Source: Nannobrachium achirus (taxonomy: Eukaryota; Chordata; Actinopteri; Myctophiformes; Myctophidae). From it: DNA of 64,000 nucleotides. The DNA lies in the NCBI GenBank assembly GCA_963921795.1, contig OY997647.1, positions 61,757,857-61,821,856 of the forward strand, in the 5' to 3' direction. Under the pieces are notes generated by a model. That model was not told where the DNA came from and made no database searches. It worked only from the letters and a program-made list of their open reading frames with translations. The translations under genes and the position numbers were made by a program. This document shows, one piece after another, positions 34,496 through 63,656 of the stretch; position 1 is the stretch's first letter; each line of letters starts with the position of its first letter.

Positions 34496-34642
34496 GCGCC
34501 AATGTTACTCACCACCTCCAGTCTGGAGGGGGGGGGGGGGGGGGGACTGATTGGCAAAGCGTTAATCAATACTCAGCCTATCCTAACTGGATCTCCTAAC
34601 TGGTTAGTCAGCTGTATCCCATGTTGTCATTAATCAGTCAGA

Positions 34643-34650
34643 TATAAAAG
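34643..34650 (+). promoter_or_regulatory. TATA box of copy A
   Basis: TATAAAAG within a block, from TGATTGGCAAAGCGTTAATC to GCAGGTCAAATC, that is conserved at 52425-52545 (copy B). GTTAATCAATACTC upstream resembles an HNF1-type half-site palindrome, which is only suggestive. Confidence 0.55.
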
Positions 34651-34672
34651 CAGGTCAAATCCCGCTAATATT

Positions 34673-34701
34673 TATTTCTGTGCTGAACAGCGTCTTCTGT
34701 T
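34673..34701 (+). other. Putative first exon, copy A (non-coding)
   Basis: Starts about 30 bases below the TATA box and ends before GTAAGT at 34702 (ACAGCGTCTTCTGTT then donor). Copy B shares AACAGCGTTTTCC then GTAAGT, so both the exon and the donor are preserved. Confidence 0.5.
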
Positions 34702-37876: not shown

Positions 37877-37919
37877 GGAAACCAAAGTCTTTGGGTTCCG
37901 GGGGGAGTATGGTTGCAAA

Positions 37920-37950
<31 letters not shown>

Positions 37951-38136
37951 ACACCAGGAGTGGAGCCTGCGGCTTAATTTGACTCAACACGGGGAAGCTC
38001 ACCCGCCCCGGACACAGAAAGGATTGACAGATTGATAGCTCTGTCTCGATTCTGTGGGTGGTGGCATGGCCGTTCTTAGTTGGTGTAGTGATTTGTCTGG
38101 TTGATTCCGATAACGAACGAGACTCCGGCTTGTTAA
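37877..38136 (+). pseudogene. 18S rRNA fragment, copy A (about 250 bp)
   Basis: GGAAACCAAAGTCTTTGGGT through GGAATTGACGGAAGGGCA and TTGACTCAACACGGGGAAGC to ACGAACGAGACTCCGGC is unmistakable nuclear small-subunit rRNA (around positions 1080-1350 of vertebrate 18S). It carries substitutions and deletions and lacks the rest of the gene. Relative to copy B, the first two thirds have been deleted. Confidence 0.93.
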
Positions 38137-38332
38137 GTAATACATTTGACTACTTTTTCCACCACTGATTTTAAGAGAGACGTTTACTGAACTAATTCAG
38201 CTTATTTATGCGACAGAGAATCTTACTTAGTCTGTATGTCTGTCTGTCCCTCTGTCTGTATGTCTGTCCCTCCCTCTCTCTCTCTGCTGTAGTTTCACTG
38301 CGTTCTACGCTGAACTAAGGTAATCTTCTCAG

Positions 38333-38575
38333 CCGAATAACTGGAGGTGCAGGAGGGACTCCCTTCATGCCCATAAACCCTGGTCCAACCCCGATAAAGA
38401 GAAGACTGTGGTGGACGCTGGGAGGATGGGTGGGATTCCCCTCGAGGGTACCGATGTGTGCCAAACCGGTGTTCAGCTGCGCTGGAAACATGATACTGGA
38501 CTACCCACGTTGCTGTCATTCCACCGCGAAGCAGAATACACAACGTGGGCGGTTGCAGTGAACCACCGAACTGGG
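38333..38575 (+). CDS. Unknown protein, 81-codon exon, copy A
   Basis: Acceptor CTTCTCAG, donor GTAAGT, length a multiple of three, fully open in phase 0. Readable segments are RCRRDSLHAHKPWSNP, EKTVVDAG, IPLEGTDVCQTGVQLRWK and SFHREAEYTTWAVAVNHRTG. Copy B (56528-57013) has the same frame with 83 codons once its transposon insertion is discounted, and differs by many substitutions without a stop. I recognise no family. Caution: the part encoding PTL...TTWA is itself a hairpin (CCACGTTG / CAACGTGG), so it may derive from a palindromic repeat. Confidence 0.4.
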
Positions 38576-38912
38576 GTAAGTCTAGAGAAGATGTGTTTGT
38601 TACATTCTGCAACAGTATATTGCTGTTCTCACTATAAAGTTAACTACAACTACTTTATATCACTCACCATTGTATTTATAGGGCTCAAGCCTGAAAGGCT
38701 GGATTAAAACTCTTTGTTTTATTGTGGGGTCCTTATAAGGCCACTCAATTGAAATTCTGGTATAACTCATGTCCTTGACCTACAGACATGAAACTTCATT
38801 AAACAAGTGCATCTCCTCATACAGAACAACTCTAACAGTCTGACTTTTTAAAGACAGCCATGCCTCGTTAAATAAAAACAAATGTAATACTTCCTATGGT
38901 TAAATCCCTCAG

Positions 38913-39014
38913 TTCAACTACAAGCACCAGGCCCAGGTGGAGTGCCCGCGAAGCCAAGTCGGAAGGCTGCCGGTTGTGGCGCGGCCAAATGGGAGATACA
39001 CCCAGTCTCCTTAA
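38913..39014 (+). pseudogene. GRLP-type terminal exon, frameshifted copy
   Basis: After AATCCCTCAG it begins TTCAACTACAAGCACCAGGC, as in the exon at 46427. The frame ending VGRLPVVARPNGRYTQSP-stop is present, but a one-base loss near 38955 separates it from the start frame. TAA at 39012, donor TCA-GTAAGT at 39023. Confidence 0.4.
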
Positions 39015-39256
39015 ATCCCTCAGTAAGTAATTTTCTTGATCAACAATAGCCGAAAATGTTTCGATATAATAATTAAAAACAAAAACGTAGGAAACTGGAA
39101 ACGCAACTGTGGCAAGCGTCCCCCCCCCTTGTTGATCTGCTATTTTCAAAAGATTTGTACACATTTTGTACATTTGAAACGTGTGAAATTAGTTGCTACT
39201 CTGAAGAAATCATTTAATTTTTTTTCAACACTTTAACTCTCTCCTTGGTGTTTCAG

Positions 39257-39361
39257 GTGGCACCAGCAGTTCCACCCCCACCTCCACTCAGACCACGGGT
39301 ACAAGTGGGACGACTGCCCATTGTGGCCAAAAAAGATGGCAGATACGTACCGTCCCCCTAA
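39257..39361 (+). CDS. Unknown protein, GRLP-type terminal exon (35 codons with stop)
   Basis: Acceptor GGTGTTTCAG. Phase 0 reads VAPAVPPPPPLRPRVQVGRL then PIVAKKDGRYVPSP-stop. The frame ends in the same GRLPxVA..GRYxxSP-stop as four other units. A proline-rich N-terminal part precedes the conserved block. The downstream donor for this unit is less obvious (GTAAAT at 39415). Confidence 0.4.
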   Translation: MAPAVPPPPPLRPRVQVGRLPIVAKKDGRYVPSP

Positions 39362-39508
39362 ACCCCTCCCCGTCCCCCTACAAGCTCGCAGTGGCAGAGA
39401 GGACAATGACAACGTAAATAAAAATTGAGTTGGAACTGGCTGTTGACTAAAATAATATTAATCACTAATAATGTTTCTGTGGGTTTGTTTGTTTGTTTGT
39501 GGTTCCAG

Positions 39509-39594
39509 GATTGTCGCTTAACCCTAACCCTGCAGATGTTAACAGAGGAGCAGCTCTCTGCCCTGGGCCCTGAGGCTTCCTTCGACAGCAATCA
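39509..39594 (+). CDS. Unknown protein, exon reading LTEEQLSALGPEASFDS
   Basis: Acceptor GGTTCCAG, donor GTGAGT. The single open frame reads DCRLTLTLQMLTEEQLSALG then PEASFDSN and splits a codon after CA. Joining it to the acceptor at 39835 keeps frame into LFQLFSQVGFNQAGFDPHTQ. LTEEQLSALGPEA resembles helices of mesothelin/stereocilin-like repeats, but the segment is too short to call. Confidence 0.35.
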
Positions 39595-39835
39595 GTGAGT
39601 GTGTAAGTCAGAGGTTCTCCGCCACGACCCCCCAAAATAATCATACATTAACTGGAGACCCCCATTCCCTGACAGAGTTGAGGCATTACATTTTGTATAA
39701 CACGGTTCTATTGTGAAAATAGTAGATCTACATGCTCACAACGCCTCGCAGCGGCTATTTTCACAATGTCAGCCTCTAATATTTGACAATTTGACCAACG
39801 TATCATTTTTTTTCAACACTTTTTAACTCTCCTAG

Positions 39836-40061
39836 GCTATTCCAGCTGTTCAGCCAGGTGGGGTTCAACCAGGCGGGGTTCGACCCCCATACGCAAAGGC
39901 CATTGGGACAACACAACAGACCGCAACACAGCAAAACAAAGACAAATGCGAACACTAACAAACCCTCACAGTTAACCACCCACCATGCCAAAATAAATTG
40001 GCACGTAAATACAATTAATGGTGGTATCATAGTAGGAAATAATGGGTGCCAGGTTTTGTAG
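39836..40061 (+). CDS. Unknown protein, possible continuation exon
   Basis: Follows TTTTTAACTCTCCTAG, the same acceptor type used by the GRLP exons, and stays open for 75 codons to TAG at 40059. From about 39900 the DNA (CAACAGACCGCAACACAGCA) recurs in presumed introns at 40625, 44283 and 57890, so the real exon may end earlier. Confidence 0.25.
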
Positions 40062-40326
40062 AAGTTATTCACCGAGCCTCTAACCCCCACAGGTTGAGAA
40101 CCACTGGTCTAATAATTCTTATTGTGGGTCATTATTAACCTTTTTGTATTGTCATCACTCAGGCGCAACTGGAAACGCCCCTGTGGCAAGCATCCCCCCC
40201 CGTGTTGATCTATTTTCAAAAGATTTGTACACATTTTGTACATTTGAAACGTGTGAAATTAGTTGCTACTCTGAAGAAATCATTTAATTCTTTTTCAACA
40301 CTTTAACTCTCTCCTTGGTGTTTCAG

Positions 40327-40432
40327 GTGGCACCAGCAGTTCCACCCCCACCCGGACCACGGACCACGTCTGCAAGTGGGACGACTGCCCATTGTGGCCA
40401 AAAAAGATGGACGATACGTACCGTCCCCCTAA
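40327..40432 (+). pseudogene. GRLP-type terminal exon with 7-bp tandem-duplication frameshift
   Basis: Same acceptor and VAPAVPPPP start as 39257, then GGACCAC is tandemly duplicated, throwing the frame. After it LQVGRLPIVAKKDGRYVPSP-stop is in another frame. Donor GTAAGT at 40441. Confidence 0.45.
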
Positions 40433-40467
40433 ATCCCTCTGTAAGTAATTTTCTTGATCAACAATAA

Positions 40468-40530
40468 CCGATCTACAAGCTCACAACGGCAACGCGTCAA
40501 TTCACGCTGCGGTGTGAGCTTGTAGATCGG
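40468..40530. repeat. Short palindrome cassette copy
   Basis: CCGATCTACAAGCTCACAAC pairs with GGTGTGAGCTTGTAGATCGG. Confidence 0.85.
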
Positions 40531-40872
40531 CTATCTTCTTCCTTTTATCTATTTTAGAACATAAGACAATACAGTACATGGTCACACACAGGGTAGGAGA
40601 AACAGAACATAACAAAATAAACACAACAGACCGCAACACAGCAAAACAAAGACAAATGATGTCATTGTAATGATTTATGCCAGTGTGCCAGTGATCACCC
40701 TCTCCTGTGCCACCTTTTGGCACGCGTGCCTAAGGTTGCCTACCCCTGAGCTAGAGAGACCCCTGTTACTAAGCAAACACTCTTTAAAACAATGATGAAC
40801 AATGCTCAATGATGAACAATGCTCAATGATGAACAATGCTATCAGAAATGTAGTGCTTTTTTTTCCCACCAG

Positions 40873-40988
40873 GGGAAGTGCTGCTTCCCGAGCTCCAGCC
40901 CCTCCCACACGAGGGAGCCCCTCCCCCCACTGTTTCCATCCAACCCCCGCCAGGCCTGACACTGGAACTAAAGGTCAATTATTTTTGA
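40873..40988 (+). CDS. Unknown protein, VNSF-type terminal exon 1
   Basis: After TTTCCCACCAG the frame reads GEVLLPELQPLPHEGAPPPT then VSIQPPPGLTLELKVNYF-stop. TGA 40986 is followed by GA and donor GTAAGTAAAG. It is one of seven paralogous units with the pattern LLP.LQ.LP..GAPPP..VPI..PPGL.I.VNSF-stop. Confidence 0.4.
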
Positions 40989-41125
40989 GAGTAAGTAAAG
41001 TACAGTAAAGCCACGGCTTAAAAGGCAGATGTTGGCACCCACCCGTGCCTAAGGTTGACCACGGGTCCCTGAGCTAGAGAGACAGAAATCAGAAATGTAG
41101 TGCCTTTTTTTTTACACTCCTGCAG

Positions 41126-41251
41126 GCCCTCCTCCCACCAGAGCCGGTCCTCCTGACCGCACTGCAGGACCTCCCACGCGGGGGAGACCCTGGCCCTAAT
41201 GTGCCCATCCAAGCCCCACCAGGACTTAAAATGATTGTCAACTCAAAGACG
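41126..41251 (+). CDS. Unknown protein, VNSF-type terminal exon 2 (stop lost)
   Basis: Acceptor CACTCCTGCAG. Phase 0 reads ALLPPEPVLLTALQDLPRGG then PNVPIQAPPGLKMIVNSK. The TTTTAA of its sister at 58167 is missing and the donor has become GCAAGT, so this unit is probably damaged. Confidence 0.4.
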
Positions 41252-41345
41252 CAAGTAAAGTAATTTTCTTAGAACAGAAATGTACATATTCCACCTTCCC
41301 ACTTGAACTTTTTGCAGCTTTTTAATCCTCTATTCTCCCCTACAG

Positions 41346-41764
41346 ATGATTCCAGGAGTTCTAAGCAGTGTTGCAGTGGTCTTGGGTCGCGCGCCCCCGA
41401 CGACCCATATCTTTTTTGAGCCGGGGTCTCGCACCCACCGAAGTTCACACCTCCTCGACAACCGTTTAACAAGAAACTAGCCTATTTGCATATCAATAGA
41501 CCTGTATAGTAGGTGTCGAGCGACGTTCGCGACCCCCCAAACATTGAATCACCACTGCACCACTGGTTCTAAGTCCATGTTCAGGACATTAAAGAAACAA
41601 CCCCGATGCCCCTTTTTAAACACTCCTGCAGCCCCTCCTCCCCACCAGGGGAAGTTCTCCTCCCCGACCTCAAGCCCCTCCCACGCGAGGGAGCCCCTCC
41701 CCACACCGTTCCAGTCCCACCCCCTCCAGGCCTGACCATTAAATTGGTGGTCAATTCTTTTTGA
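41346..41764 (+). pseudogene. VNSF-type terminal exon 3, interrupted by hAT element
   Basis: Acceptor CCCTACAG; DSRSSK is interrupted by the element 41366-41565 and resumes with SMFRTLKKQ. An inner acceptor CTCCTGCAG at 41641 leads to PPGEVLLPDLKPLPREGAPP and VPVPPPPGLTIKLVVNSF-stop. TGA 41762, donor GTAAGTAAAG. Paralogue at 58736 lacks the insertion. Confidence 0.5.
41366..41565. mobile_element. Complete 200-bp miniature hAT element, target duplication GTTCTAAG
   Basis: Ends CAGTGTTGCAGTGGT and ACCACTGCACCACTG are inverted. A perfect 8-bp duplication GTTCTAAG flanks it (41358-41365, 41566-41573). The uninterrupted site GGAGTTCTAAGTCC survives at 58744-58757. Confidence 0.95.
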
Positions 41765-41861
41765 GAGTAAGTAAAGTCATTTTCTTATAACAGAAATGTA
41801 CATATTCCACCTTCCCACTTCACCTTTTTGCAGCTTTTTAACCCTCTATTCTGCCCTACAG

Positions 41862-42034
41862 ATGATTCCACAAGTTCCAAGTCCATGTTCAGGACATTAA
41901 GAAAGCAGGCCCTCCTCCCACCAACCCCCCAGCTCCAGCCCGCACTACAGCCCCTCCCACGCAGGGGAGCCCCTCCCCCTGTGGGAAATGTGGCAGTCCC
42001 GCCAGGCACACCCATAACAGTAAATTCTTTTTGA
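41862..42034 (+). CDS. Unknown protein, VNSF-type terminal exon 4 (longest intact)
   Basis: Acceptor CTGCCCTACAG. With one upstream base the frame reads DSTSSKSMFRTLRKQALLPP, then LQPLPRRGAPPPVGNVAVPP and GTPITVNSF-stop (TGA 42032), 57 codons without a break. The preceding interval 41769-41861 is a model 93-bp intron (GTAAGTAAAG ... TTTGCAG ... CTACAG) joining it to unit 3. Confidence 0.45.
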
Positions 42035-42083
42035 GCTTACACACGTGCCTTGACCCAAGAGGAACACATCTGTGTTTTTGTCC

Positions 42084-42164
42084 AAAACGGATTTAAGTGT
42101 TTTATTAACTGCTCAAAATGGAGCTTCCATTTTGAGCAGTTAATAAAACACTTAAATCCGTTTT
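42084..42164. repeat. Perfect 39-bp-arm palindrome, absent from copy B
   Basis: Arms AAAACGGATTTAAGTGTTTT.. and their exact complement are separated by three bases (GCT). Copy B at about 59372-59390 reads straight through CATCTGTGTTTTTCCCT, so this is an insertion in copy A. Confidence 0.95.
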
Positions 42165-42266
42165 TTTCCCTGGGACTTTTGATCAATTCGCAAAAGACAT
42201 TCTACACACAATCTGAGAACCATTAACTAGAGCAGGGGTTCTCCTTTCTTCCCTTTCGTCCCCCAG

Positions 42267-42503
42267 GAATATGAAGTTCTCCGGAGGTTCAATTGGGGAT
42301 ATAAGTTTGTTGTGCCGCGTGTGCCGACTTCCGCTGCAGCTCTGGCAAACTTTGATCAGACGGATGTGAGGAATGTGGCCTACAACGAGCATTGCTTTCC
42401 AGAAGACGACGACTACCAACAAAACCAACAAATAGACAGACATGCCTTGACCTCACCAAGGTTTGAACCCAAGGAATGTTGGCAGAAAAAGAAAGGACAA
42501 TAA
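42267..42503 (+). CDS. Unknown protein, 79-codon terminal exon, copy A
   Basis: Acceptor TCGTCCCCCAG. Phase 0 reads EYEVLRRFNWGYKFVVPRVP, TSAAALANFDQTDVRNVAYN, EHCFPEDDDYQQNQQIDRHA, LTSPRFEPKECWQKKKGQ-stop. TAA 42501 lies 9 bases before a GTAAAA donor. A paralogue in copy B (59481-62860) is the same length less one codon but is split by a 3.1-kb element. A more diverged relative is at 57198-57356. Confidence 0.5.
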   Translation, partial: EYEVLRRFNWGYKFVVPRVPTSAAALANFDQTDVRNVAYNEHCFPEDDDYQQNQQIDRHALTSPRFEPKECWQKKKGQ

Positions 42504-43039
42504 ACCAAAGGTAAAATTCATAACATATTCATAGACGGACAACCATTGACTTTGCAAAAATATACAGTTGTGCTTGAAATTATTCAACCCCCTCTGACAA
42601 ATGTATTAATTAGTGTAACCACTGTTCCTTTGACTTAAAACTTGTGAACTTTGCTCAAAACTGTACTTTTTGGAACATTCAGTGTCTTTGCAATTGTTTT
42701 ATATCCTTTTCTTTTTAACAAAACAATCATCTCTTCTCTGAACTTTTCTGACCATTCCTTAAACTTAGCCATGTTTCTAACTGCTCTAAACACAGCCAAC
42801 AAGTCAACAAACGTCTAGTCATAGCTGGGAGGGAATTCCTAAACATTGATGTTTACGATGCTGCCAAATATTTCAATTCACGTTTCTGCGCCCCACTGAA
42901 ATATTTAAAAAATGCACCATCTTGTAGATCTGCGCCTTTTCAACCAAATTGTGATGATTTCAAAAATATGGAAATTGTCTGAAGATATTTTAATTGTTTA
43001 AAAACATTGTTAATGTTGGTTCATGTTTTGTTTTTGTAG

Positions 43040-43171
43040 CCAGCAGTCCTAGTCGTCCTCGCGAAAGAGATGACGGATACATTCATGCTCGAGCCATTCC
43101 GTTTCCTCCAGGATGAGCTCCTATACCTGGAGAACCACCTGCTAGCCAATGACTTCAAATACCTAACTGGT
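43040..43171 (+). CDS. Unknown protein, 44-codon internal exon, copy A
   Basis: Acceptor TTTTTGTAG, donor GTACGG, 132 bases, phase 0, fully open: PAVLVVLAKEMTDTFMLEPF then RFLQDELLYLENHLLANDFK, YLTG. It looks amphipathic-helical and has an identical reading in copy B (63397-63528). The donor is immediately followed by a long CA repeat. Confidence 0.5.
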
Positions 43172-43175
43172 GTAC

Positions 43176-43286
<111 letters not shown>

Positions 43287-43424
43287 TGTGTTATGCGTTA
43301 ACGCATTACCTTTCCGATTCAGTAACGCTGTTATTGTTACTGTGGTGTAAGGGGGCTTGTTAGTCAGTTATTTTCTACTAGAGGGTCGCGGCCCTTCGGG
43401 CCGCTCACATCTAGTTAAAAAAAG

Positions 43425-43698
43425 GTGGGAGGACCTTTAAGTCTAGCTACTTGACAGACTTCCTCAAGGCAGGGTGTGAGGTGGGAGGACCTTTAAGTCT
43501 AGCTACTTGACAGACTTCCTCAAGGCAGGTGTGAGGTGGGAGGACCTTTAAGTCTAGTTACTTGCACCAGCAGAACGTGCAAGTACCGTGTCTGTATCCG
43601 GCTGACAGTACAAAGGATAGAGACAGCACTGATCACAGTACTTGTGCGCTCTGCCTCGCGCACAAGTAGGCCATATATGGCCACGAGTGCACAAGGCA
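43425..43698. repeat. Copy of yars1 intron 3 minisatellite and adjacent element
   Basis: GGTGGGAGGACCTTTAAGTC, CTACTTGACAGACTTCCTCA and AGGCAGGGTGTGAG repeat twice, then ACTTGCACCAGCAGAACGTG to GTGCACAAGGC as at 18131-18353. A shorter copy is at 63663-63828. Confidence 0.9.
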
Positions 43699-44123
43699 CA
43701 ATTCGTAAACATTGGGCACTTGGTGACAAGTTTTAGATTTTTGGCATGGTGTTAGGTATGGCGATAAGGTTTTCAAAAATCATCGCAAACAAATTGGGAT
43801 TGCCCCCTAGTGGTCTGTTTGCAATGGATCCAATATTAGATATGGTTGAAATCCCAAATAATTGACTAATTGATTCTGTTACTATTGGGTATGCTAAATA
43901 ACATACTACGATGGCTGCTGGGAGCTTAAAATGCCTGTAAACTGGGATTTGATATATAAAAAATCGTAACAACTGTGCACTTGGTGACAGGTTTTTGATT
44001 TTCGTCATGATGATAATTCAATGTATTTAGCCCCATATCAAATGGCCAAATTTTAGCATCAGATTTTCAGAAGTTAATTCGTTCTCTGTAACCTTTCTGA
44101 CCCCAAACGTGTATAGTACACAG

Positions 44124-44227
44124 ATGACAACACAGTCCAACACAGGGTTGGACCCCGAAGTGCGAGGGCCGTTGGGCGGCTGCCCGTGGTGGCAAGGCCA
44201 AATGTCCGCTACGTACATTCCCCCTAA
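44124..44227 (+). pseudogene. GRLP-type terminal exon, diverged
   Basis: In one frame it reads TVQHRVGPRSARAVGRLPVV then ARPNVRYVHSP-stop (TAA 44225), with donor GTAAGT at 44236. The acceptor (CACAG at 44123) is one frame off, so a small indel is likely. Confidence 0.35.
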
Positions 44228-44370
44228 ATCCCCAAGTAAGTAATTTCTCTTGATCACAATCAAATCATATCAGAACACCACCACAACAGACAACACAGCA
44301 GAACAAAGACAGCCCTCACAGTTAACCACCCACCATGCAAAAATAAATTCAATATTTAGATATTTGATGT

Positions 44371-44479
44371 AATTGCGACCGTAGGGGGACCCCCAGATGT
44401 AAAAAATGACCAAATGTGCTCACACGTCACACTTTTTCCCTGCTTATATCTCCGCACCCGTTGACCCGATCCATGCCAG

Positions 44480-44512
<33 letters not shown>

Positions 44513-45064
44513 TCCTTGCCTGCCAAACTACAACCTCCAAGGACCCCCGGAGCCCCAGGGACCCCCAGGTCCCTGGGGGACCCCCAGATGTAAAAAATGA
44601 CCAAATGTGCAAAAATGACCAAATGACCACCCCAACGGGGCTGCTCACGGGGAATTCCCGGGGACCACCGACTCCTGGTGCTCCAGAACGGATGCAAAAG
44701 TGGTGGCGCCCCCAGTGGAGGACCCCCTGCCACTGCAGCGCACATAAAATGCCGTAACTCGGGCTAGGAGCGTCCGGGAGAGCCGGGGCCGGTACCTATT
44801 CGTCCGCCAAGGCAACGCGGAGACCCCACCCCTCATTTCTCACATGGCCCTATTCTAGCGCCACCTTCAGGCCGATTTTTAAAACACATTTTTGGACACT
44901 GCTCCTATAGTTTTTGCCCTAAAATCACGAATATCACTACACAGCATGTCTACACTCATGTCATCAACATGGATCAGGAAGATTTGGGAAAAACAAATTT
45001 TTGCCCTATTTGTGGAGATAAGCCACCTACGGTCGCTTATCTCCCGATTAGGGAGTCTTACTGG
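44371..45064. mobile_element. Transposon-like repeat beginning GCGACCGTAGG (copy 2)
   Basis: Homologous to 16273-17085. It adds a CA run, and ACCTACGGTCGC near its right end is the inverse of its left end. Confidence 0.65.
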
Positions 45065-45160
45065 TGTAATATTTGATAAAATGTCCAGGACCCAACAGTG
45101 TACTAACATACTTCTCTTTTCTTCCAGTCTTCCGGTCTGATAAAAAAAAAAAATCAATGA

Positions 45161-45210
45161 TAGCTCACAACGCGTCGCTTCACGCCGCGGTGTGAGCTTG
45201 TAGATCGGCT
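45161..45210. repeat. Short palindrome cassette, right-hand part
   Basis: TAGCTCACAACGCGTCGCTT then GGTGTGAGCTTGTAGATCGG. Most of the left outer arm is missing. Confidence 0.75.
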
Positions 45211-45245
45211 ATTTTTTTTTTCAACACGTTTTAACTCTCTCCTAG

Positions 45246-45377
45246 GTCTTCGGAGCACCCCCACCCCGACCAGGTGCTATTGTGCCTGCACCTGTGCCCC
45301 CACCCCCACCCCCCACGGGTACAGTGCAGTGCGGCAGGCTGCCTGTCTGTGCCATGACATACAAACACTCCCCCTAA
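45246..45377 (+). CDS. Unknown protein, GRLP-type terminal exon (44 codons with stop)
   Basis: Acceptor ACTCTCTCCTAG. Phase 0 reads VFGAPPPRPGAIVPAPVPPP then TGTVQCGRLPVCAMTYKHSP-stop (TAA 45375), 43 residues. Donor GTAAGT at 45386. It keeps GRLP and the SP-stop ending while the middle has diverged. Confidence 0.4.
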   Translation, partial: VFGAPPPRPGAIVPAPVPPPPPPTGTVQCGRLPVCAMTYKHSP

Positions 45378-45412
45378 ATCCTTCAGTAAGTCATTTTCTT
45401 GATCAACAATAG

Positions 45413-45465
45413 CCGATCTACAAGCTCACAACACGCCGCTTCACCCCGCGGTGTGAGCTTGTAGA
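45413..45465. repeat. Short palindrome cassette copy
   Basis: CCGATCTACAAGCTCACAAC pairs with GGTGTGAGCTTGTAGA. Confidence 0.8.
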
Positions 45466-45671
45466 ACAGCAATTTGCAATTTTTTTTTCCTTTTTATATA
45501 TTTATTCACCATTACAGTACATACAGTACATGGTCACTAACAGTTATTAGCTATTAACCTTCTGCACGTCAGAAAGTCACAACTAAATTCGGTTTGGGAG
45601 AGACTAGGGACAGGCCTTTAGTAAGCTATCAGAAGTTATTTTTTTTTCAACACTTTTTAACTCTCTCCTAG

Positions 45672-45857
45672 GTCTTCGGAGCACCACCACCCCCCCCCCA
45701 CCCCCACCATACCCTCTGCCTGCAGCAGTGCCTGGGCCTGGGCACAACTCTGAGGATGGCTGCCTGCCCTGATGCTGTAGTTTGGACATCCCTGTGGCCT
45801 GTTGAGTCTGATGACTCTGATGGCACCTTACGCAATTTAATACAAGGTGAATGTTAA
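45672..45857 (+). CDS. Unknown protein, 62-codon terminal exon
   Basis: Acceptor ACTCTCTCCTAG, beginning VFGAPPPPPH like 45246, then LCLQQCLGLGTTLRMAACPD, AVVWTSLWPVESDDSDGTLR, NLIQGEC-stop. The last third is half of a 111-bp tandem duplication (45770-45990). Confidence 0.35.
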   Translation, partial: VFGAPPPPPHPHHTLCLQQCLGLGTTLRMAACPDAVVWTSLWPVESDDSDGTLRNLIQGEC

Positions 45858-45990
45858 TTAATAATGACGATTGCCTGCTCTGATGCTGTAGTTTGGACAT
45901 CCCTGTGGCTTGTTGTGTCTGATGACTCTGATGGCACCTTATGCAATTTAATACAAGGTGAATGTTAATTAATATACTGTAAATAAATGT
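45770..45990. repeat. 111-bp tandem duplication
   Basis: TGATGCTGTAGTTTGGACAT to TACAAGGTGAATGTTAATTA occurs twice at 111-bp spacing with few differences. Confidence 0.93.
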
Positions 45991-46201
45991 ATGTACTCTG
46001 AACGCCACAAAGACAATGGTTCTCAACCTGTGGGTCGGGACCGAATTATTTTGGGGGGTCCCCAGATGATTAACTTAATGTGCAACGTTGTTTTCTCTCT
46101 CAACAGTAAACAAACCAACATTTCTAAAGTGACAATTTAAGGACTTTTTAATACCTCTGAAATTTTAACTTTGGCCAAATTGTCAAATATTAGAGGCAGA
46201 C

Positions 46202-46265
46202 ATTGTGAAAATAGCCCGGCATCACAACGCCTCGCAACAAGATGTAGATCTGCTATTTTCACAAT
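46202..46265. repeat. Short palindrome cassette copy
   Basis: ATTGTGAAAATAG and CTATTTTCACAAT frame a scrambled core with CACAACGCCTCGCAAC. Confidence 0.75.
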
Positions 46266-46426
46266 AAATAGAACCAAACCGTCACAAACAGTTATTAGCT
46301 ATTAACCTTCTGCACGTCAGAAAGTCACAACTCTCCAAAGAAAAGTTCGGTTTGGGAGGGGCTTGGACAGGCATTTACTAAGTTATCAGCCAAGTTATTT
46401 TTTCCAACACTTTAACACTCTTCTAG

Positions 46427-46730
46427 ACCGTTCAACTACAAGCACCAGGCCCAGGCAGAGCGGTGCCCCCACGCCCCCGAAGCCAAGTCGGGAAGCTGCC
46501 TGTGTTGGCCAGGCCAAATGGACCCCCACCGCCAGGCCAAATGGACCCCCACCACGGGTCCAAACAGGGAGGCTGCCTGTGTTAGCCAGGCCAAATGGAC
46601 CCCCACCACGGGTCCAAACAGGAAGGGGCTGCCTGTGGTGGCCAGGCCAAATGGACCCCCACCGCGGGTCCACACAGGAAGGCTGCCTGTGGTGGCCAGG
46701 CCAAATGGGAGATACACCCAGTTCCCTTAA
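46427..46730 (+). pseudogene. GRLP-type terminal exon with internal about 60-bp repeats
   Basis: Acceptor CTCTTCTAG. Starts TVQLQAPGPGRAVPPRPRSQ then VGKLPVLARPNGPPP. The block GGCCAAATGGACCCCCACC with GGTCCAAACAGGGAGGCTGC is then repeated with frame-breaking lengths, ending in GRLPVVARPNGRYTQFP-stop (TAA 46728) in another frame. Donor GTAAGT at 46740. Confidence 0.45.
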
Positions 46731-46895
46731 ATCCCTCAGTAAGTAATTTTCTTGATCAACAATTGCCGAAAATGTTTCGATATAATGATTAAAAACAAAA
46801 ACGTAGGAAACAAAAAATAAAAAGGGACACCTAAAAAGGGGTCCTGACCCACTGTTTGGGAAACAGTGTACTAACATACTTCTCTTTCCTTCCAG

Positions 46896-47000
46896 TGTGT
46901 TGACCCCACCCCCTGTTCACCAGACGTTGTACTGGACCCCGCCCCTCCCCTGTCTTGTCTTTTGTTTAATTACATTAAATTTTAATGTACAAAGATGGCT
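46896..47000 (+). other. Possible 3' terminal exon of copy A with ATTAAA signal
   Basis: Acceptor CTTTCCTTCCAG followed by an open stretch (CVDPTPCSPDVVLDPAPPLS) to TAA and ATTAAA at about 46973. No further units of this series follow before copy B. Confidence 0.3.
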
Positions 47001-48930
47001 CACTGTTTTTCCTTTTTTTCAATTCTATCAAAATGAGGGGAAGATGTTACAGTAAGTCAATGTTATTTATAGAGCAAGTTTAAAAACATTTAAACTGTCA
47101 GGAATTTGAGGAAATCAAAGAGTAAGAATTCTCCAATCATCATGTAATTGATAGTGGAAAAAGCCAATGTCCTGTTTAGGGAACTTCTGACATGCTTGTC
47201 CACTGAAGTCCAATGACACTTATTTAAATGTAAAGTATTTCAAGTTCATATCCTCCACTTAAATGCTAACACTTTGAGTACTATAAATAGTTGGTTCAGC
47301 CCTGTGCTTGCTGTCCAGCTCATCGGTTAACCTTCCTGGGACAAAACAAATGTGGGTGACCAAAGCACTTTGTTTAAATCCCCCAGGTGTTCCCCCTTGG
47401 GTTATACCCCGTGCTGTGACCTTGTATGGTTATACCCCGTGCTGTGACCTTGTATGGTTATACCCCGTGCTGTGACCTTGTATGGGTATGCGGCAGCAGC
47501 AGTCTAATTTTCGTATAGCTATTTACGTAGAGTAATATGACATAAGATTAAAAAGAATAATAGTGTAATTCAGTGTGCCGTGGATGAAAAAGGTGAAACC
47601 ATGAATATAGAGGAACCTCTGGGAACAGACCAGGTGGGGGCTCTGCTCTCTCAAAGTTAAACACACAAACTAAGCAGCGTCTGCCCTGCTATAGTTGAAT
47701 ACATGGACTGAGTTCAGTCATTTGGATTCCATTGAAGCCAGCATGACTTCTATGGAAGCATGTTGGTCACCCAAAATGTTTTGTTTGTTTTTCGATCAAA
47801 GTAATAAAAGATTCTCCAAGACCTGTCCATAGAAGTGCTGTGCTCCACTCGCCTCCCTGGCAAACTTTATTCTTAACCATGGAGTGTCTTCATGTCAGCC
47901 AAGTGGATGCCATGCTCCTTGTTCACAGACGCCTCCACACAGCTTGCATCACATGGAACCTGCAGAGAAGAAGCGTGGCTTCTGGGAAGGCCTCGGTCTC
48001 TCTGCTCCATCATCGGCTATGAAGATCTGTTGCCAAGGGTGAAAATGTAATAATGTTTTTTAAGTCAATTAATATTTTTCTATTGTGTTTGGGTACTGGT
48101 AAACCAAATACAGGCGTCATCAGACATTAAAATATCCTCCAGATCAACCTCAAGAAAAGACACAAAATGTTTGAGAACAATACAGACCGCACCACCTCAA
48201 AACTTAAATTTTACCTTGAAAGAACTGTTCCACTAAATACATGAAGGAGAACCTTTAAGATCATGTATTAGGACCAATACAAACTATATTGCATTACTAT
48301 TGCAATTTCTCTGGGGTTGGGCCTTTTTGGCTTGGACTGACTGGCCTATTAAACAACATTCTACCTGTGGCCCTCTCATTCCTCTGCCTAAGACATGACT
48401 TTCCAAACATTTTAAGCTTGACGTCAGAGATTAAAGAAACAAAGTTTAATTCATTAAGTGCACTGCGAAGCTTGGCCAATGAGCCAAGTGTGGGACATAA
48501 CAGTACGTTCATACAGCTTTGTCTCAAAATATGAATTGTGTAAAAAAGGCATTGGAAGCAGTAGATGTCATAGCATCCCAAATCATCACTGATTGAGGAA
48601 CTTTGACACTGGACTTCAATCAACTCTGACTTCAGAAGATTGACATTTCTCTAATTGTTTTGAATGGTCTTTGTAATACTGTAATATTTTGAGATATGGA
48701 TTTTTGATTTTCATGATCTGTATGCCATAAACATCAGAATTATGCCATAAAAAACTAAAATGGGTTTGCATATTTCACTGCATGCATAACGTATCCAGAT
48801 TCTAGATTCATTTCTTTACGGAATTACAGAACATTTTCCACAATATTCTAACTTGAGACAAAGCTGTACAAACAGACAAAGACAGATGACCAATTTACAA
48901 GCAACACGTTTAGACCTACTTTATTCCACT
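47000..48930. other. Intergenic stretch without recognisable gene
   Basis: Contains the 28-bp repeat and, at about 48595-48790, a decayed relative of the 3' flank of the Tc1/mariner remnant at 12215. Short open frames have no support. Confidence 0.5.
47405..47490. repeat. 28-bp tandem repeat, three copies
   Basis: GGTTATACCCCGTGCTGTGA then CCTTGTAT repeated three times. Confidence 0.92.
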
Positions 48931-48938
48931 CATTGTCA

Positions 48939-56527: not shown

Positions 56528-57013
56528 CCGAATCCCTGCAGGTGCAGGAGGGACTCCCTTGACCGCCATCAACCCTGGTCCAACCCCGGGGCTGTTAATG
56601 AGAAGACTGTGGTGGAAGCTGGGAGCATTTGTGAGATTCCCCTCGAGGGTACCGATGTGTGCCAAACCGGTGTTCCCCTGCGCCAGTGTTGCAGTGGTCT
56701 TGGGTCGCGCGCCCCCGACGACCCATATCTTTTTTGAGCCGGGGTCTCGCACCCACCGAAGTTCACACCTCGACAACCGTTTAACACCGAAGTTCACACC
56801 TCGACAACCGTTTAACAAAGAAACTAGCCTATTTGCATATTAATGGACCTGTATAGTAGGTGTCGAGCGACGTTCGCGACCCCCCAAACATTGAATCACC
56901 ACTGCACCACTGCCCTGCGCTGGAAGAATGAAAGTGGACCACCCACGTTGCAGTCATTTCACCGAGAAAGTGAATACTCAACGTGGGTGGTTGCAGTGAA
57001 CCACCAAACTGGG
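56528..57013 (+). pseudogene. Unknown protein, 83-codon exon, copy B, interrupted by hAT element
   Basis: Homologue of 38333-38575: RCRRDSLDRHQPWSNP, EKTVVEAGSICEIPLEGTDV, CQTGVPLR, then the 229-bp element, then WKNESGPPTLQSFHRESEYS, TWVVAVNHQTG and GTAAGT. Confidence 0.5.
56684..56912. mobile_element. Complete 229-bp miniature hAT element, target duplication CCCTGCGC
   Basis: Same family as 41366-41565 with a 29-bp internal duplication (CGAAGTTCACACCTCGACAA). Perfect 8-bp duplication at 56676-56683 and 56913-56920. The uninterrupted site is present in copy A at about 38476. Confidence 0.95.
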
Positions 57014-58166: not shown

Positions 58167-58292
58167 GCCCTCCTCCCACCAGAGCCGGTCCTCCTGCCCG
58201 CACTGCAGGACCTCCCACGCGGGGGAGCCCCTGGCCCTAATGTGCCCATCGAGGCCCCACCAGGGCTTAAAATAACTGTTAATTCATTTTAA
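58167..58292 (+). CDS. Unknown protein, VNSF-type terminal exon 5
   Basis: Acceptor CTCCTGCAG. Phase 0 reads ALLPPEPVLLPALQDLPRGG, APGPNVPIEAPPGLKITVNS, F-stop (TAA 58290). Donor GTAAGTAAAG at 58297. It is the intact sister of 41126. Confidence 0.45.
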   Translation, partial: ALLPPEPVLLPALQDLPRGGAPGPNVPIEAPPGLKITVNSF

Positions 58293-58529
58293 GACGTAAG
58301 TAAAGTAATTATCTTAGAACAACAGAAATGTACATATTGCACCTTCCCGCTTCACCTTTTTGCAGCTTTTTAATCCTCTATTCTACCCTACAGATAGACA
58401 GATGAAAGAACCCCCACCCTTCCAGTTGAAGAGGACCCCCCCCCCCCCCACCACCTAAAATTAATTGTAATGTGTGTGAAAACTAAAAATGTTTTAAATT
58501 AAAAAAAATTACACACACAAATAAACTCC

Positions 58530-58649
58530 TCCCACACGGAGCCGGTCCTCCTGCCCCCACTGCAGGATCTCCCGCACGGGGATGCCCCTGCCCCCATAGT
58601 CCCCATCCAGGCCCCACCAGGAATTAAAATTAAAGTTAACTCATTTTAA
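58530..58649 (+). pseudogene. VNSF-type terminal exon 6, acceptor lost
   Basis: Reads SHTEPVLLPPLQDLPHGDAP, APIVPIQAPPGIKIKVNSF-stop with donor GTAAGTAAAG at 58654. No acceptor precedes it, the upstream being an A-rich join. Confidence 0.4.
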
Positions 58650-58735
58650 GACGTAAGTAAAGTAATTTTCTTAGAACAGGAATGTATCCCACTTCACCTT
58701 TTTGCAGCTTTTTAAGCCTCTATTCTGCCCTACAG

Positions 58736-58937
58736 ATGATTCCAGGAGTTCTAAGTCCATGTTCAGGACATTAAAGAAACAACCCCGATGCCCCTTTTTA
58801 AACACTCCTGCAGCCCCTCCTCCCCACCAGGGGAAGTTCTCCTCCCCGACCTCAAGCCCCTCCCACGCGAGGGAGCCCCTCCCCACACCGTTCCAGTCCC
58901 ACCACCGCCAGGCCAGACCATAATAATGGGTGGTTAA
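58736..58937 (+). CDS. Unknown protein, VNSF-type terminal exon 7
   Basis: Acceptor CCCTACAG; DSRSSKSMFRTLKKQ uninterrupted, then inner acceptor at 58813 and PPGEVLLPDLKPLPREGAPP, VPVPPPPGQTIIMGG-stop. Sister of 41346, with a changed C-terminus. Confidence 0.4.
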
Positions 58938-59110: not shown

Positions 59111-60585
59111 GCTGGATTAAAACTCTTGTTTTATTGTGGGGTCCTTATAAGGCCACTAAATTGAAATTCCAACTTTGAACTGGTATAACTCATGTCCTTG
59201 ACCTACAGACATGAAACTTCATTAAACAAGTGCATCTCGTCTCCACTCTTGACTTTTGATCGGTGCTTTAACAATCGTTTGAATATACACTTTAAAGAGG
59301 CATTCATGCCTTGTTTGGCCTAAAGACATGCAACTTGCTTCCACACGTGCCTTGACGCAAGAGTAACACATCTGTGTTTTTCCCTAGGATTTTTGATCAA
59401 TTTGCAAGAAACATTCTACACACAATCTGAGAACCGTTAACTAGAGCAGGGGTTCTCCTTTCTTCCCTTTCGTCCCCCAGGAATATGAAGTTCTCCGGAG
59501 GTTCAATTGGGGATATACGTTTGTTGTGCCGCGCGTGCCGACTTCCGCTGCAGCTCTGGCAAACTTTGATCATAGTAGGGGAGCCTATGTATCAGATTCT
59601 GTTGGCCGTAATTTTGGAATGTTAATTTTTGGAGACATGTATATCTTGATTCTTGGGGTTCTCAGAATGCCAAAAAAACATGTCTCCAATTTTTCTTTTT
59701 GGGTTTAGCTGGTGTAATTAGCATAATTAGTCAATTAATTGCCCAAAACAGGAAATGGCAATAACTTTGCTTCTAGGTAACTTATAAAGGTGATCTAAGA
59801 GTCTAAGTCGATGTTTGTGAGGTCCAGAAATTATCTGTTACCATTTTGAAGTCATACAAACTTTCCTAATTAGCATAATTAGCATAAATTATGCAACAAC
59901 GAGGTGAAAATAAGCAAATTGCTTATTTTTTTCAGTTTTAGTCAACTTTGAAAGCTTCTCACAGACTTTAAGATGTAAGTTTACAAATCATCAATTATCA
60001 TCATCCTATAAATAAATCATGCAACCCTGTATCTGTGTAATAATTACGTAATAATCACACCAAAACCAGAAAGCTATATTTCTTTGCTTCAAGTTAATTA
60101 ATAAACTGATCTTACAGACAGTGTAAGTCTGTTTGCAAGACTAGAAAATATTCTCTTTCCATAACTAGGATATCTAACCTTCCCTTATTAGCTTAATTTG
60201 CATATATATCCTTCATATAAAATAAAGAACAATATGAGAAATGGTCACAGAATTATCAGATTGTTTATTCTCAGAAAATATTGTAAACACATTTAAATAG
60301 AAGGGTCTCCATCTTTTTGTCGTCAACACCAATTCCCAACACCAATGCCTTGCTTACATTACAACACACCTATTCATCTGCCCCACACATGCACATCTCA
60401 GAGCAGTTAAAACGTTAAGATCGACAAGAACAATGTGACACGCACTGGGATTTCTTGCAGCCACATTTGATCAGTTGGGTATTATGGGTAATGGTGGCTG
60501 GAGCTGGGGGTTCCCGTGTTGTGACTGGCACCAGTTGTTCTCCCTCAGCCTCCATCCATATTCAGTTACTGGTGGTATCTGTGGG

Positions 60586-60852
60586 TTATGTACGTGGTCC
60601 TGACTCCTCATACCATATTGCCTTGTAATGGGAACGGGCAATGGCTTGATGTAATGCTCCTTGTGTAGGTGGCAGCTTATCGGCTTCTAATTGGTTCTTT
60701 GTGAATAACCTCCACCTGAGCTCACCAACATCCACAAGATTTGTACCGGGCTCGTACAGCTGGCAAACAAATGTTTCAACCTTTTTTTCTGTGTCAGAAC
60801 TGAGCTTTTTTGTAATACCTAGAGTAGCAAATGCAAATGGGAAAGCCATCAT
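60586..60852 (-). pseudogene. Transposon protein fragment, left arm (minus)
   Basis: Reads FAFATLGITKKLSSDTEKKV, ETFVCQLYEPGTNLVDVGEL, RWRLFTKNQLEADKLPPTQG. Further out on the same strand a frame-shifted Cys-rich tail (KCGCKKSQCVSHCSC) resembles tesmin/TSO1-type CXC tails of a protein family found widely in fish and invertebrate mobile elements. Confidence 0.6.
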
Positions 60853-60910
60853 GGATCAAGACATGTTCCCAGTGGGCTGACCACTTCATAGCCACACTGG
60901 ACAGGAACAT

Positions 60911-61180
60911 AGTGAGACTCATGTAGTATTTGACCGCTATGGCATTGCATCTTCACTGAAGGATGCCACATGTAAGCGACACCAGGGTGGCAAGCCCCCT
61001 ACCACTTATGATGTGGAAGACAACACACCGATAGGGAAGGTGTCAGAAAAACTATTCTTGTCAGGTATCCACACCAAAGATGAGCTGATTGTCTATCTTG
61101 CTAAGAAAGCCCTCCAACTCTTCCAGGGAAAACCCAACATTATCATAATCAAGGCAAGATGTCCACTCAAACTCTATTGA
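60911..61180 (+). pseudogene. Transposon protein fragment, central part
   Basis: Reads SETHVVFDRYGIASSLKDAT then CKRHQGGKPPTTYDVEDNTP, IGKVSEKLFLSGIHTKDELI and ends CPLKLY-stop (61178). Probably the N-terminal continuation of the right-arm protein. Confidence 0.55.
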
Positions 61181-61227
61181 TGTACAGTAAAACATACCAG
61201 GGTATGAAAACTTACCAGGGTTCCATG

Positions 61228-61735
61228 CCATCATGGAACTGACCAGACAGGCCATTTTGTTGGCAAGGGAAAGTTAACCTGTTGGCAAGCTCTAAACCGG
61301 TGTCCTGTGGAGGTGGTATTTGCATTTGATACTCTAGGCACTGCAAAAAAGCTCAGTTCTGACGCAGAAAAAAAATACTAAGATTTAAGCATTTGTTTGC
61401 AAGCTGTACGAGCCCGGTACAAATCTTGTGGATGTTGGTGAGCTCAGGTGGAGGTTATTCACAAAGAAACAATTGGAAGCAGAGAAGCTGCCACCTACAC
61501 AAGGAGCATTACATCAAGCCATTGCCCGTGCCCATTACCAGGCAATGGTATGGTATGAGGAGTCAGGACCACGTACATAACCCACAGATACCACCAGTAA
61601 CTGAATATGGATGGAGGCTGAGGGAGAACAACTGGTGCCAGTCACAACACGGGAACCCCCAGCTCCAGCCACCATTACCCATAATACCCAACTGATCAAA
61701 TGTGGCTGCAAGAAATCCCAGTGCGTGTCACATTG
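61228..61735 (+). pseudogene. Transposon protein fragment, right arm (plus)
   Basis: TGHFVGKGKLTCWQALNRCP, VEVVFAFDTLGTAKKLSSDA then a frameshift. The Cys-rich end LIKCGCKKSQCVSHCSCRS-stop is intact in another frame. It mirrors the left-arm fragment. Confidence 0.55.
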
Positions 61736-61929
61736 TTCTTGTCGATCTTAACGTTTTAACTGCTCTGAGATGTGCATGTGTGGGGCAGATGAATATGTGT
61801 GTTGTAATGTAAGCAAGGCACATCTGTTGGGAATTGGTGATGATGACGATGGAGACCCTTCTATTTAAATGTGTTTTCACAACTTTCTGTAAATATTAGA
61901 ATAAACAATCTGATAAATCTGTGACCATT

Positions 61930-61933
<4 letters not shown>

Positions 61934-62012
<79 letters not shown>
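61934..62012. repeat. (AT)n microsatellite with CCATCCATCCATC insertion
   Basis: AT run, then CCATCCATCCATCTTCAACC GCTTATCCGGAATCGGGTCA, a common fish repeat segment, then another AT run (62061-62096). Present only in the right arm. Confidence 0.9.
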
Positions 62013-62015
<3 letters not shown>

Positions 62016-62056
62016 ATCCATCCATCCATCTTCAACCGCTTATCCGGAATCGGGTC

Positions 62057-62101
<45 letters not shown>

Positions 62102-63396
62102 CATGCAAATTATGCTAATAAGGAAAGGTTAAATATCCTAGTTATGGATAGAGAATATTTTCGAGACATGCAAACAGACTTACACTGTCTGTAAGATCAT
62201 GTTTATTAATTAGCTTAAAGCAAAGAAATATAGATATTTCTGGTTTCGGTGTGATTATTACATAATTATTACACAGACAAAGTGTTGCATGATTTATTTA
62301 TAGGATGATGATAATTGATGACTTGCAAACATACATCTTAGAGTCTGTGAGAAGCTTTCAAAGTTGACTAAAACTTAAAAAATGCAGCAATTTGCTTATT
62401 TCCACCTCATTTTTGCATAATTTATGCAATTTATGCTAATCAGGAAAGGTTGTATGACTTCACAATGGTAACAGATGAATTTCTTGACCTCACAAACATG
62501 GACTTAGACTCTTAGATCACCTTTATAAGTTACCTAGAAGCAAAGTTCTGTTTTGGGCAATTAATTGTCTAATTATGCTAATTACACATGCTAAACCCCA
62601 AAAGAAAAATTGGAGACATGTTTTTTTGGCATTCTGAGAACCCCAAGAATCAAGATGTACATGTCTCCAAAAATTAACATTCCAAAATTACGGAAATACA
62701 TAGGCTCCTCTACTATCAGACGGATGTGAGGAATGTGGCCTACAAAGAGCATTGCTTTCCAGAAGAAGACTACCAAAAAAAACAACAAATAGACAGACAT
62801 GCCTTGACCTCACCAAGGTTTGAACCCAAGGAATGTTGGCAGAAAAAGAGAGGACAATAAACCAAAGGTAAAAGTCATAACATATTCATAGACGGACAAC
62901 CATTGACTTTGCAAAAATATACAGTTGTGCTTGAAATTATTCAACCCCCTCTGACAAATGTATTAATTAGTGTAACCACTGTTCCTTTGACTTAAAACTT
63001 GTGAACTATGCTCAAAACTGTACTTTTTGGAACATTCAGTGTCTTTGCAATTGTTTTATATCCTTTTCTTTTTAACAAAACAATCATCTCTTCTCTGAAC
63101 TTTTCTGACCATTCCTTAAACTTGGCCATGTTTCTAACTGCTCTAAACACAGCCAACAAGTCAACAAACGTCTAGTCATAGCTGGGAGGGAATTCCTAAA
63201 CATTGATGTTTACGATGCTGCCAAATATTTCAATTCACGTTTCTGCGCCCCACTGAAATATTTAAAAAATGCACCATCTTGTAGATCTGCGCCTTTTCAA
63301 CCAAATTGTGATGATTTCAAAAATATGGAAATTGTCTGAAGATATTTTAATTGTTTAAAAACATTGTTAATGTTGGTTCATGTTTTGTTTTTGTAG

Positions 63397-63528
63397 CCAG
63401 CAGTCCTAGTCGTCCTCGCGAAAGAGATGACGGATACATTCATGCTCGAGCCATTCCGTTTCCTCCAGGATGAGCTCCTATACCTGGAGAACCACCTGCT
63501 AGCCAATGACTTCAAATACCTAACTGGT
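63397..63528 (+). CDS. Unknown protein, 44-codon internal exon, copy B
   Basis: Same acceptor, frame, length and donor (GTACGG) as 43040-43171, with no amino-acid change that I can see. Confidence 0.5.
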
Positions 63529-63532
63529 GTAC

Positions 63533-63656
<124 letters not shown>

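What the first reader, a model, noticed from the sequence alone, without database searches (positions are those of the whole stretch)
38333..47000. An unrecognised gene-like array of short proline-rich exons
Seen: exon-sized units with good acceptors and GTAAGT-type donors, repeatedly open in one phase, in two diverged copies of one segment. Families recur (81/83-codon, GRLP-type, VNSF-type, 79-codon and 44-codon exons). The peptide endings are conserved between units whose DNA has diverged. Several units are broken, so it may be a decaying or fast-evolving lineage-specific gene. Inference: an undescribed secreted or low-complexity protein family.
Basis: partly seen in the sequence, partly recalled or inferred. 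Interest (0 to 1): 0.78.

Follow-up and report, generated by a model that had tools for sequence, protein, structure and literature searches.

The report
Amplified fast-diverging FAM78-like fish genes
The strange array of short exons is the start of a long tandem array of copies of a fast-changing fish gene, distantly related to FAM78 genes, whose coding pieces differ between several copies far more than the non-coding DNA beside them.

Summary
The exon-like units are real. The 81- and 79-codon units are two halves of one domain, joined at a phase-0 intron. It is homologous to a paralog on C15 that I recognise from memory as FAM78 (hhalign E=1.1e-7; 0 of 1000 shuffles reach the score). Paralogs on C1 and C5 match in two pieces that break at about the same place. 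The window holds the first two of at least 15 tandem units of mostly about 17 kb; diverged copies lie at C10:61.41 and 62.21 Mb and on C413. Proline-rich V exons show coding constraint (changes by codon position 24/32/57, p=4e-4). U1 and EYEV have dN/dS near 1, yet exceed flanking DNA 3.5- to 23-fold in four clean comparisons, at synonymous sites too; the two closest pairs show no excess. This resembles exon switching in snake-venom genes. Window copies are partly broken: a stop in A, an insertion in U1 of 14 of 14 B-type units, a transposon in EYEV of window B. Only 5 of 10 tail exons in unit A keep the conserved ending in phase 0. Without expression data, live family versus decaying array stays open. 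'Secreted' is unsupported.

The parts
34547..34701 (+). Promoter-like stretch (TATAAAA at 34643) and short first exon with donor GTAAGT at 34702, unit A
   Evidence: Conserved in unit B (52420-52578) and in the C10:61.42 Mb copy
37969..38263 (+). 18S rRNA pseudo-fragment just upstream of the first domain exon, unit A
   Evidence: Rfam RF01960, E=4.4e-37; the 62.21 Mb copy lacks 37876-38132
38293..38575 (+). U1: first half of the FAM78-like domain. Acceptor TGTAG ending at 38292, donor GTAAGT at 38576.
38913..39022 (+). G-type (GRLP) tail exon ..VGRLPVVARPNGRYTQSP*, donor at 39023
39257..39361 (+). G-type tail exon VAPAVPPPPPLRPRVQVGRLPIVAKKDGRYVPSP*, phase-0 acceptor, no GTAAGT after it
39509..39595 (+). 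DCRL exon-like unit, inside a dispersed repeat
   Evidence: Related pieces at C10:13.02 Mb and 8.03 Mb
39836..39972 (+). G-type beginning (AIPAVQPGG..) without the GRLP ending
40327..40440 (+). G-type tail exon, ending out of frame with its acceptor, donor at 40441
40873..40990 (+). V-type tail exon ..LELKVNYF*, not phase 0 at its acceptor, donor at 40991
41126..41245 (+). V-type tail exon, ending lost (VNSKTQ, donor decayed)
41632..41766 (+). V-type tail exon ..LTIKLVVNSF*, not phase 0 at its acceptor, donor at 41767
41909..42034 (+). V-type tail exon ..PITVNSF*, no donor
42267..42510 (+). EYEV: second half of the FAM78-like domain, TAA then donor GTAAAA at 42511
43040..43174 (+).
44146..44235 (+). 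G-type tail exon ..RYVHSP*, not phase 0 at its acceptor, donor at 44236
45246..45385 (+). G-type tail exon VFGAPPP..YKHSP*, donor at 45386
45672..45850 (+). G-type beginning (VFGAPPP..) without the GRLP ending
46427..46738 (+). G-type tail exon with internal repeats, frame broken inside, donor at 46739
46896..46990 (+). Likely 3' UTR exon with ATTAAA at 46974-46979 (end by eye); recurs in the array units and in the 61.41 Mb copy
56534..57013 (+). U1 of unit B, interrupted by a short hAT-like element (type recalled) at about 56684-56914 with 8-bp flanking repeat CCCTGCGC
   Evidence: both halves at the same 375-nt offset in 14 of 14 B-type units
58167..58922 (+). Three V-type tail exons of unit B (58167, 58539, 58824; the last loses its frame at the end)
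59481..62857 (+). EYEV of unit B, split by a transposon at about 59573-62714; uninterrupted in the 13 other B-type units
63397..63534 (+). PAVL unit of B

Best explanation
The array is a tandemly amplified, fast-evolving gene family of a fish. Its core (U1 + EYEV) is a diverged FAM78 C-terminal domain split by a phase-0 intron, with duplicated proline-rich terminal exons (V and G types) in and after that intron. Proposed working: a transcript starts at the TATA promoter and runs through U1. U1 then splices to EYEV or to one of those V or G tails that keep phase 0. Each tail brings its own stop just before its donor and is then joined to the 3' UTR exon. Copies evolve by unequal exchange and gene conversion, which keep introns alike, while exons are switched or left to diverge. 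Shown: domain homology, U1/EYEV phase, tandem amplification, coding constraint on V, exon-restricted divergence in several pairs. Inferred: transcription, choice between tails, gene conversion, and any function (a host-parasite or reproductive arms race would fit). Several window copies are broken.
For: Homology: hhalign of the U1+EYEV alignment to the C15 paralog E=1.1e-7 and to the C14 paralog E=3.5e-12; 0 of 1000 shuffles reach the score in 9 of 9 comparisons. Paralogs on C1 and C5 match in two pieces breaking at residues 86-94, where the U1/EYEV junction aligns to residues 93/94. The C18 paralog has the same intron, with similar ends. Array: 14 B-type units plus A. Coding: V codon-position changes 24/32/57, p=4e-4; C5 against VA3 pN/pS 0.18, p<0.001. 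Exon-restricted divergence: EYEV A-m61 56/213 against flank 2/177; U1 A-p62 55/283 against 9/222; synonymous sites exceed flanks at p<0.02 in 5 of 6 U1 pairs and 5 of 6 EYEV pairs, which share sequences.
Against: No transcripts could be examined. Only 5 of 10 unit-A tails keep the conserved ending in phase 0 at the acceptor I chose. U1 and EYEV show no codon-position bias (48/41/43 and 46/35/43), and absence of stops in single pairs is unremarkable (neutral probability 0.07-0.86). Several copies carry stops, insertions or lost donors. No 5' coding exon or start codon was established. Exon excess is absent in U1 A-m61, EYEV A-array, V VA1-C5 and VB1-VA2 and weak in G (p 0.059, 0.043, 0.49). EYEV A-C413 goes the other way: exon 64/176, flank 118/241. 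For EYEV A-m61 only the downstream flank is testable, the upstream flank being unrelated. One m61 G unit has lost its stop.
Confidence: 0.45

Rival explanations
1. A dead or dying tandem array: a FAM78-like gene was duplicated, broken by insertions and then amplified passively as a macrosatellite; the exon look is inherited and nothing is made from the window copies.
For: The U1 interruption seems to precede amplification, being at the same offset in 14 of 14 B-type units; in-frame TAA in U1 of A; transposon in EYEV of window B; dN/dS about 1 in U1/EYEV; endings lost in 2 of 8 V units; tails out of phase in 5 of 10.
Against: V units keep codon constraint. Two other loci, m61 and p62, have U1 and EYEV uninterrupted. 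EYEV is uninterrupted in 13 of 14 B-type units. Neutral decay alone does not make exons diverge faster than introns.
Confidence: 0.4
2. Exon-restricted diversification by positive selection on amino acids alone.
For: dN/dS of 1.0 or more in 10 of 15 U1 pairs, one pair being undefined; nonsynonymous rate far above flanks in most pairs.
Against: Synonymous sites are raised as much (EYEV A-m61 0.31 against 0.012 in the flank), which amino-acid selection alone does not predict; V exons are constrained yet exceed flanks in 2 of 4 pairs.
Confidence: 0.1
3. The proline-rich units are non-coding or transposon-derived repeats, and the open frames are a by-product of C-rich sequence.
For: Low-complexity C-rich sequence; the intervening DNA is full of repeats; G units give weak or no signal.
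Against: Third-position excess in V; the V peptide has 34 matches, 33 on C10 and 1 on C5, not a high-copy repeat; recurring splice sites.
Confidence: 0.05

Closest known systems
FAM78A/FAM78B (conserved vertebrate genes; name and conservation recalled, not given by any database here)
   Same: Collinear C-terminal domain with C15; shared PW, TW.VA.N, W and P I...A...P positions; intron at about the same place as in the C1 and C5 paralogs
   Different: 26% identity in the hhalign alignment, tandem amplification, fast divergence, added proline-rich terminal exons, no N-terminal exon found
Snake-venom three-finger toxin genes with accelerated exchange of exon segments (ASSET); PMC2474615, passages seen
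   Same: Duplicated genes whose introns stay alike while exon segments differ
   Different: Unrelated protein, no known toxin role here, whole exons rather than short segments, partly broken copies
Macrosatellite-type tandem gene arrays (recalled)
   Same: Near-identical units of mostly about 17 kb holding gene-like pieces
   Different: First unit and outlying copies are diverged, with older exon diversity

Membership tests
FAM78 | Sequence homology over the C-terminal domain | tested here: met
   hhalign E=1.1e-7 to the C15 paralog; 0 of 1000 shuffles. That C15 is FAM78 is recalled
FAM78 | Intron at the U1/EYEV position as in intron-bearing paralogs | tested here: inconclusive
   C1 and C5 split at residues 86-94 (the C1 piece shows one in-frame TAG), junction at 93/94; C15 has no intron there; the DNA of C1 and C5 could not be fetched to read the phase (14 requests unanswered: 91, 94, 98, 101, 107, 108, 112, 115, 118, 121, 124, 126, 129, 131)
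FAM78 | N-terminal exon | tested here: inconclusive
   No candidate established; genome search with an N-terminal peptide did not complete
FAM78 | High conservation across vertebrates | not testable with these tools
ASSET-type accelerated exon evolution | Exon divergence exceeds intron divergence between paralogs | tested here: met
   5 of 7 U1/EYEV comparisons (one, A-B, inflated by misalignment but also significant codon-aligned); 2 of 7 without excess; A-C413 opposite
ASSET-type accelerated exon evolution | Expressed product with altered function | not testable with these tools
   No expression data
Transposon or known high-copy repeat | Many dispersed copies of the units | tested here: not met
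   U1/EYEV: C10 and C413 plus weak matches on C18, C14 and C15; V: C10 and C5 only; both lists are lower bounds. The DCRL unit is in a repeat. G distribution did not complete

The most novel reading that the evidence does not exclude
A live, lineage-specific gene family built from FAM78 that diversifies by swapping or shielding exon cassettes while introns are homogenised, and that can choose among several C-terminal tails (FAM78-like EYEV, proline-rich V or G), each with its own stop placed just before a donor: an arms-race system made from a conserved gene of unknown function.
Probability: 0.2. Interest if true: 0.75.

Novelty: new variant of a known kind. Interest (0 to 1): 0.55.

Why it matters
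If expressed, it would show that a conserved gene of unknown function (FAM78, recalled) gave rise to a rapidly diversifying amplified family, a clue to what the FAM78 domain binds. It would also be a non-venom case in which coding exons diverge several-fold more than adjacent introns, even at synonymous sites. That makes the question of intron homogenisation versus exon switching testable in tandem copies from one chromosome.

Tried and rejected
Pfam gave no family for three forward frames of 34001-43002, for the units, for the C15 and C14 paralogs or for the spacer 47001-51962. NCBIfam and PHROGs gave one weak hit each, far from any cut-off or in a family of unknown function (E 0.0088 and 0.18). 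PDB gave none for the domain. Phages and plasmids gave only hits with E of 5 to 10. Prokaryote genome and viral contig scans, which look only for a few short patterns, confirmed no relative among 28, 54 and 21 candidate stretches. So a bacterial or phage origin, which I first suspected, has no support. Structure models were too poor to use (mean pLDDT 39.3 and 51.3); no fold search was run. An upstream exon near 37204-37253 was considered and left open: it has a donor in A and B, but m61 has lost it and the frame is uncertain. C413 as a tandem-domain protein was rejected, because adjacent EYEV and U1 pieces are frame-shifted fusions. A signal peptide read from the CT-rich tract before U1 was considered and rejected, because the frame is not kept between copies (by eye). 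Literature searches (listings and starts of abstracts seen, plus passages of PMC2474615) showed nothing on such a family; one search listed 20 of 112 papers.
Full report
Observation. The window lies at C10:61757857-61821856 of a 1.66-Gb genome in 564 contigs. In 34.5-47 kb the donor-like GTAAGT occurs 11 times on the + strand against a shuffle mean of 2.54, and 0 times on the other strand. 6 of 8 V units (seven in the window, one on C5) and 6 of 8 window G units keep a conserved ending followed by a stop; where a donor follows, it comes 2-8 nt after the stop. With acceptors chosen by eye, that ending is in phase 0 in 5 of 10 unit-A tails (38913, 39257, 41126, 41909, 45246) and not in the other five.

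What the core is. The 81-codon exon (U1) and the 79-codon exon (EYEV) meet in phase 0 and read as one domain. A search of the own genome found relatives in clusters on C10 and C413, and three weak matches on C18, C14 and C15. All three proved to be relatives. C15 carries a 231-residue open frame that I recognise from memory as the FAM78 last exon; no database here names it. The profile of four U1+EYEV copies aligns to it over 139 columns (E=1.1e-7) and to C14 over 86 columns (E=3.5e-12); in 9 of 9 pairwise comparisons 0 of 1000 shuffles reach the score. Searching with C15 gave 5 matches: itself, and two further genes on C1 and C5, each in two pieces breaking at residues 86-94; the first C1 piece shows one in-frame TAG. 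The U1/EYEV junction aligns to residues 93/94. The C18 locus has an intron at the same place with similar ends. I could not fetch C1 or C5 to read the phase; the machine stayed busy.

The array. Promoter to promoter, four units measure 17.9, 20.4, 28.0 and 17.2 kb over the stretch held. One search, whose counts are lower bounds, lists 14 B-type U1 copies, 14 of 14 split at the same 375-nt offset (the insertion itself was read in the window only), and 13 uninterrupted B-type EYEV copies plus the window's, which a 3.1-kb transposon splits. Unit A is the first unit: its 3' part is 99.3-99.7% identical to the three others compared, its 5' part is diverged. Diverged copies lie at 61.41 Mb (minus strand, 'm61'), 62.21 Mb ('p62') and on C413. 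In m61 and p62 both U1 and EYEV are uninterrupted. An 18S rRNA fragment sits upstream of U1 in A and B; m61 has homologous DNA there, and p62 lacks 37876-38132 of it.

Coding tests. V units: changes on a tree by codon position are 24, 32 and 57 (chi-square p=4e-4); the solitary C5 copy against VA3 gives pN/pS 0.18 (p<0.001). The 7 pairs tested range from 0.14 to 0.77, and 5 of 7 are not significant singly. In one search, with seven window units, dN/dS is below 1 in 20 of 21 pairs (the pairs overlap). U1 and EYEV show no position bias (48/41/43 and 46/35/43) and dN/dS of 0.53-1.55, with one U1 pair lacking synonymous changes. The absence of stops in single pairs is not telling (neutral probability 0.07-0.86 over the nine pairs simulated). 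I also chose open copies: one search lists two C413 pieces with stops, and A has a stop in the 5' part of U1. Gaps are whole codons by construction of the codon alignments.

Exon-restricted divergence. EYEV, A against m61: 56 of 213 exon sites differ but 2 of 177 flanking sites, nearly all downstream, the upstream flank being unrelated; A against p62: 21 of 231 and 8 of 514. U1, A against p62: 55 of 283 and 9 of 222; m61 against p62: 54 of 283 and 10 of 185. The change stops near the exon edges. A-B (41 of 283) is inflated by a misaligned exon start; codon-aligned it is 29 of 231. No excess: U1 A-m61 (4 of 283 against 9 of 688) and EYEV A-array (7 of 231 against 11 of 459). Opposite: EYEV A-C413 (exon 64 of 176, flank 118 of 241). 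For synonymous sites alone, the excess over flanks holds at p<0.02 in 5 of 6 U1 pairs and 5 of 6 EYEV pairs; the exceptions are U1 A-m61 and EYEV A-array. These pairs share sequences and are not independent. V: 2 of 4 pairs show an excess (p 0.011 and 0.028; others 0.88 and 0.31). G: p 0.059, 0.043 and 0.49. Raised synonymous divergence means that amino-acid selection alone is not enough. Homogenised introns with shielded exons, or exon switching between lineages, fit better. The closest described case of which I read passages is the viperid three-finger toxin genes, where switching is said to occur only in exons, not in introns (PMC2474615).

How it may work. In unit A the order is promoter and short first exon, U1, G and V tails, EYEV, PAVL, further G tails, and a 3' UTR exon with ATTAAA. 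In m61 the order is promoter, U1, a G unit, EYEV, G units and the UTR exon. A stop a few bases before a donor would escape nonsense-mediated decay if that donor makes the last junction (rule recalled). So each tail exon that keeps phase 0 could serve as an alternative last coding exon. This is inference; no reads were available, and no start codon or N-terminal exon was found.

Verdict. It is a real, amplified and partly broken gene family related to FAM78, not a wholly unknown low-complexity secreted protein. Whether the array is alive is open.

Noticed in passing
window 55586-56081, 56158-56429, 37969-38263: 18S rRNA pseudo-fragments upstream of U1; the 62.21 Mb paralog lacks 37876-38132, so the insertion may date the array lineage.
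   Followed up: partly
window 56684-56914 and 41366-41565: A short element with inverted ends starting CAGTG and an 8-bp flanking repeat (hAT-like by recall) lies in U1 of unit B and in an intron of A.
   Followed up: partly
window 59573-62714: A 3.1-kb transposon with long inverted halves splits EYEV in the window's B unit; EYEV is uninterrupted in the 13 other B-type units.
   Followed up: partly
window about 16084-16300: Exon of cytoplasmic tyrosyl-tRNA synthetase (best PDB match E=4.8e-26).
   Followed up: yes
L031, L032, L033 (C18:26060001-26074000): A second cluster of FAM78-like exon copies with the same intron position: three near-identical U1-like copies and a fourth different one, and three EYEV-like matches. 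Exon against intron divergence was not tested statistically there.
   Followed up: partly
L028 (C5:44551423-44551551, minus strand): A solitary V-type exon with uninterrupted frame on another chromosome; about 0.8 kb upstream an exon-like piece has a donor intron that by eye resembles the one at window 37254.
   Followed up: partly
window 43040-43177 and 63397-63534: PAVL exon-like unit with the same peptide in A and B; origin unknown; the genome search for it did not complete.
   Followed up: no
C10:61368210-61368332 (minus strand): A further V-type match about 45 kb from the 61.41 Mb copy (E=1.1e-4); not fetched.
   Followed up: no
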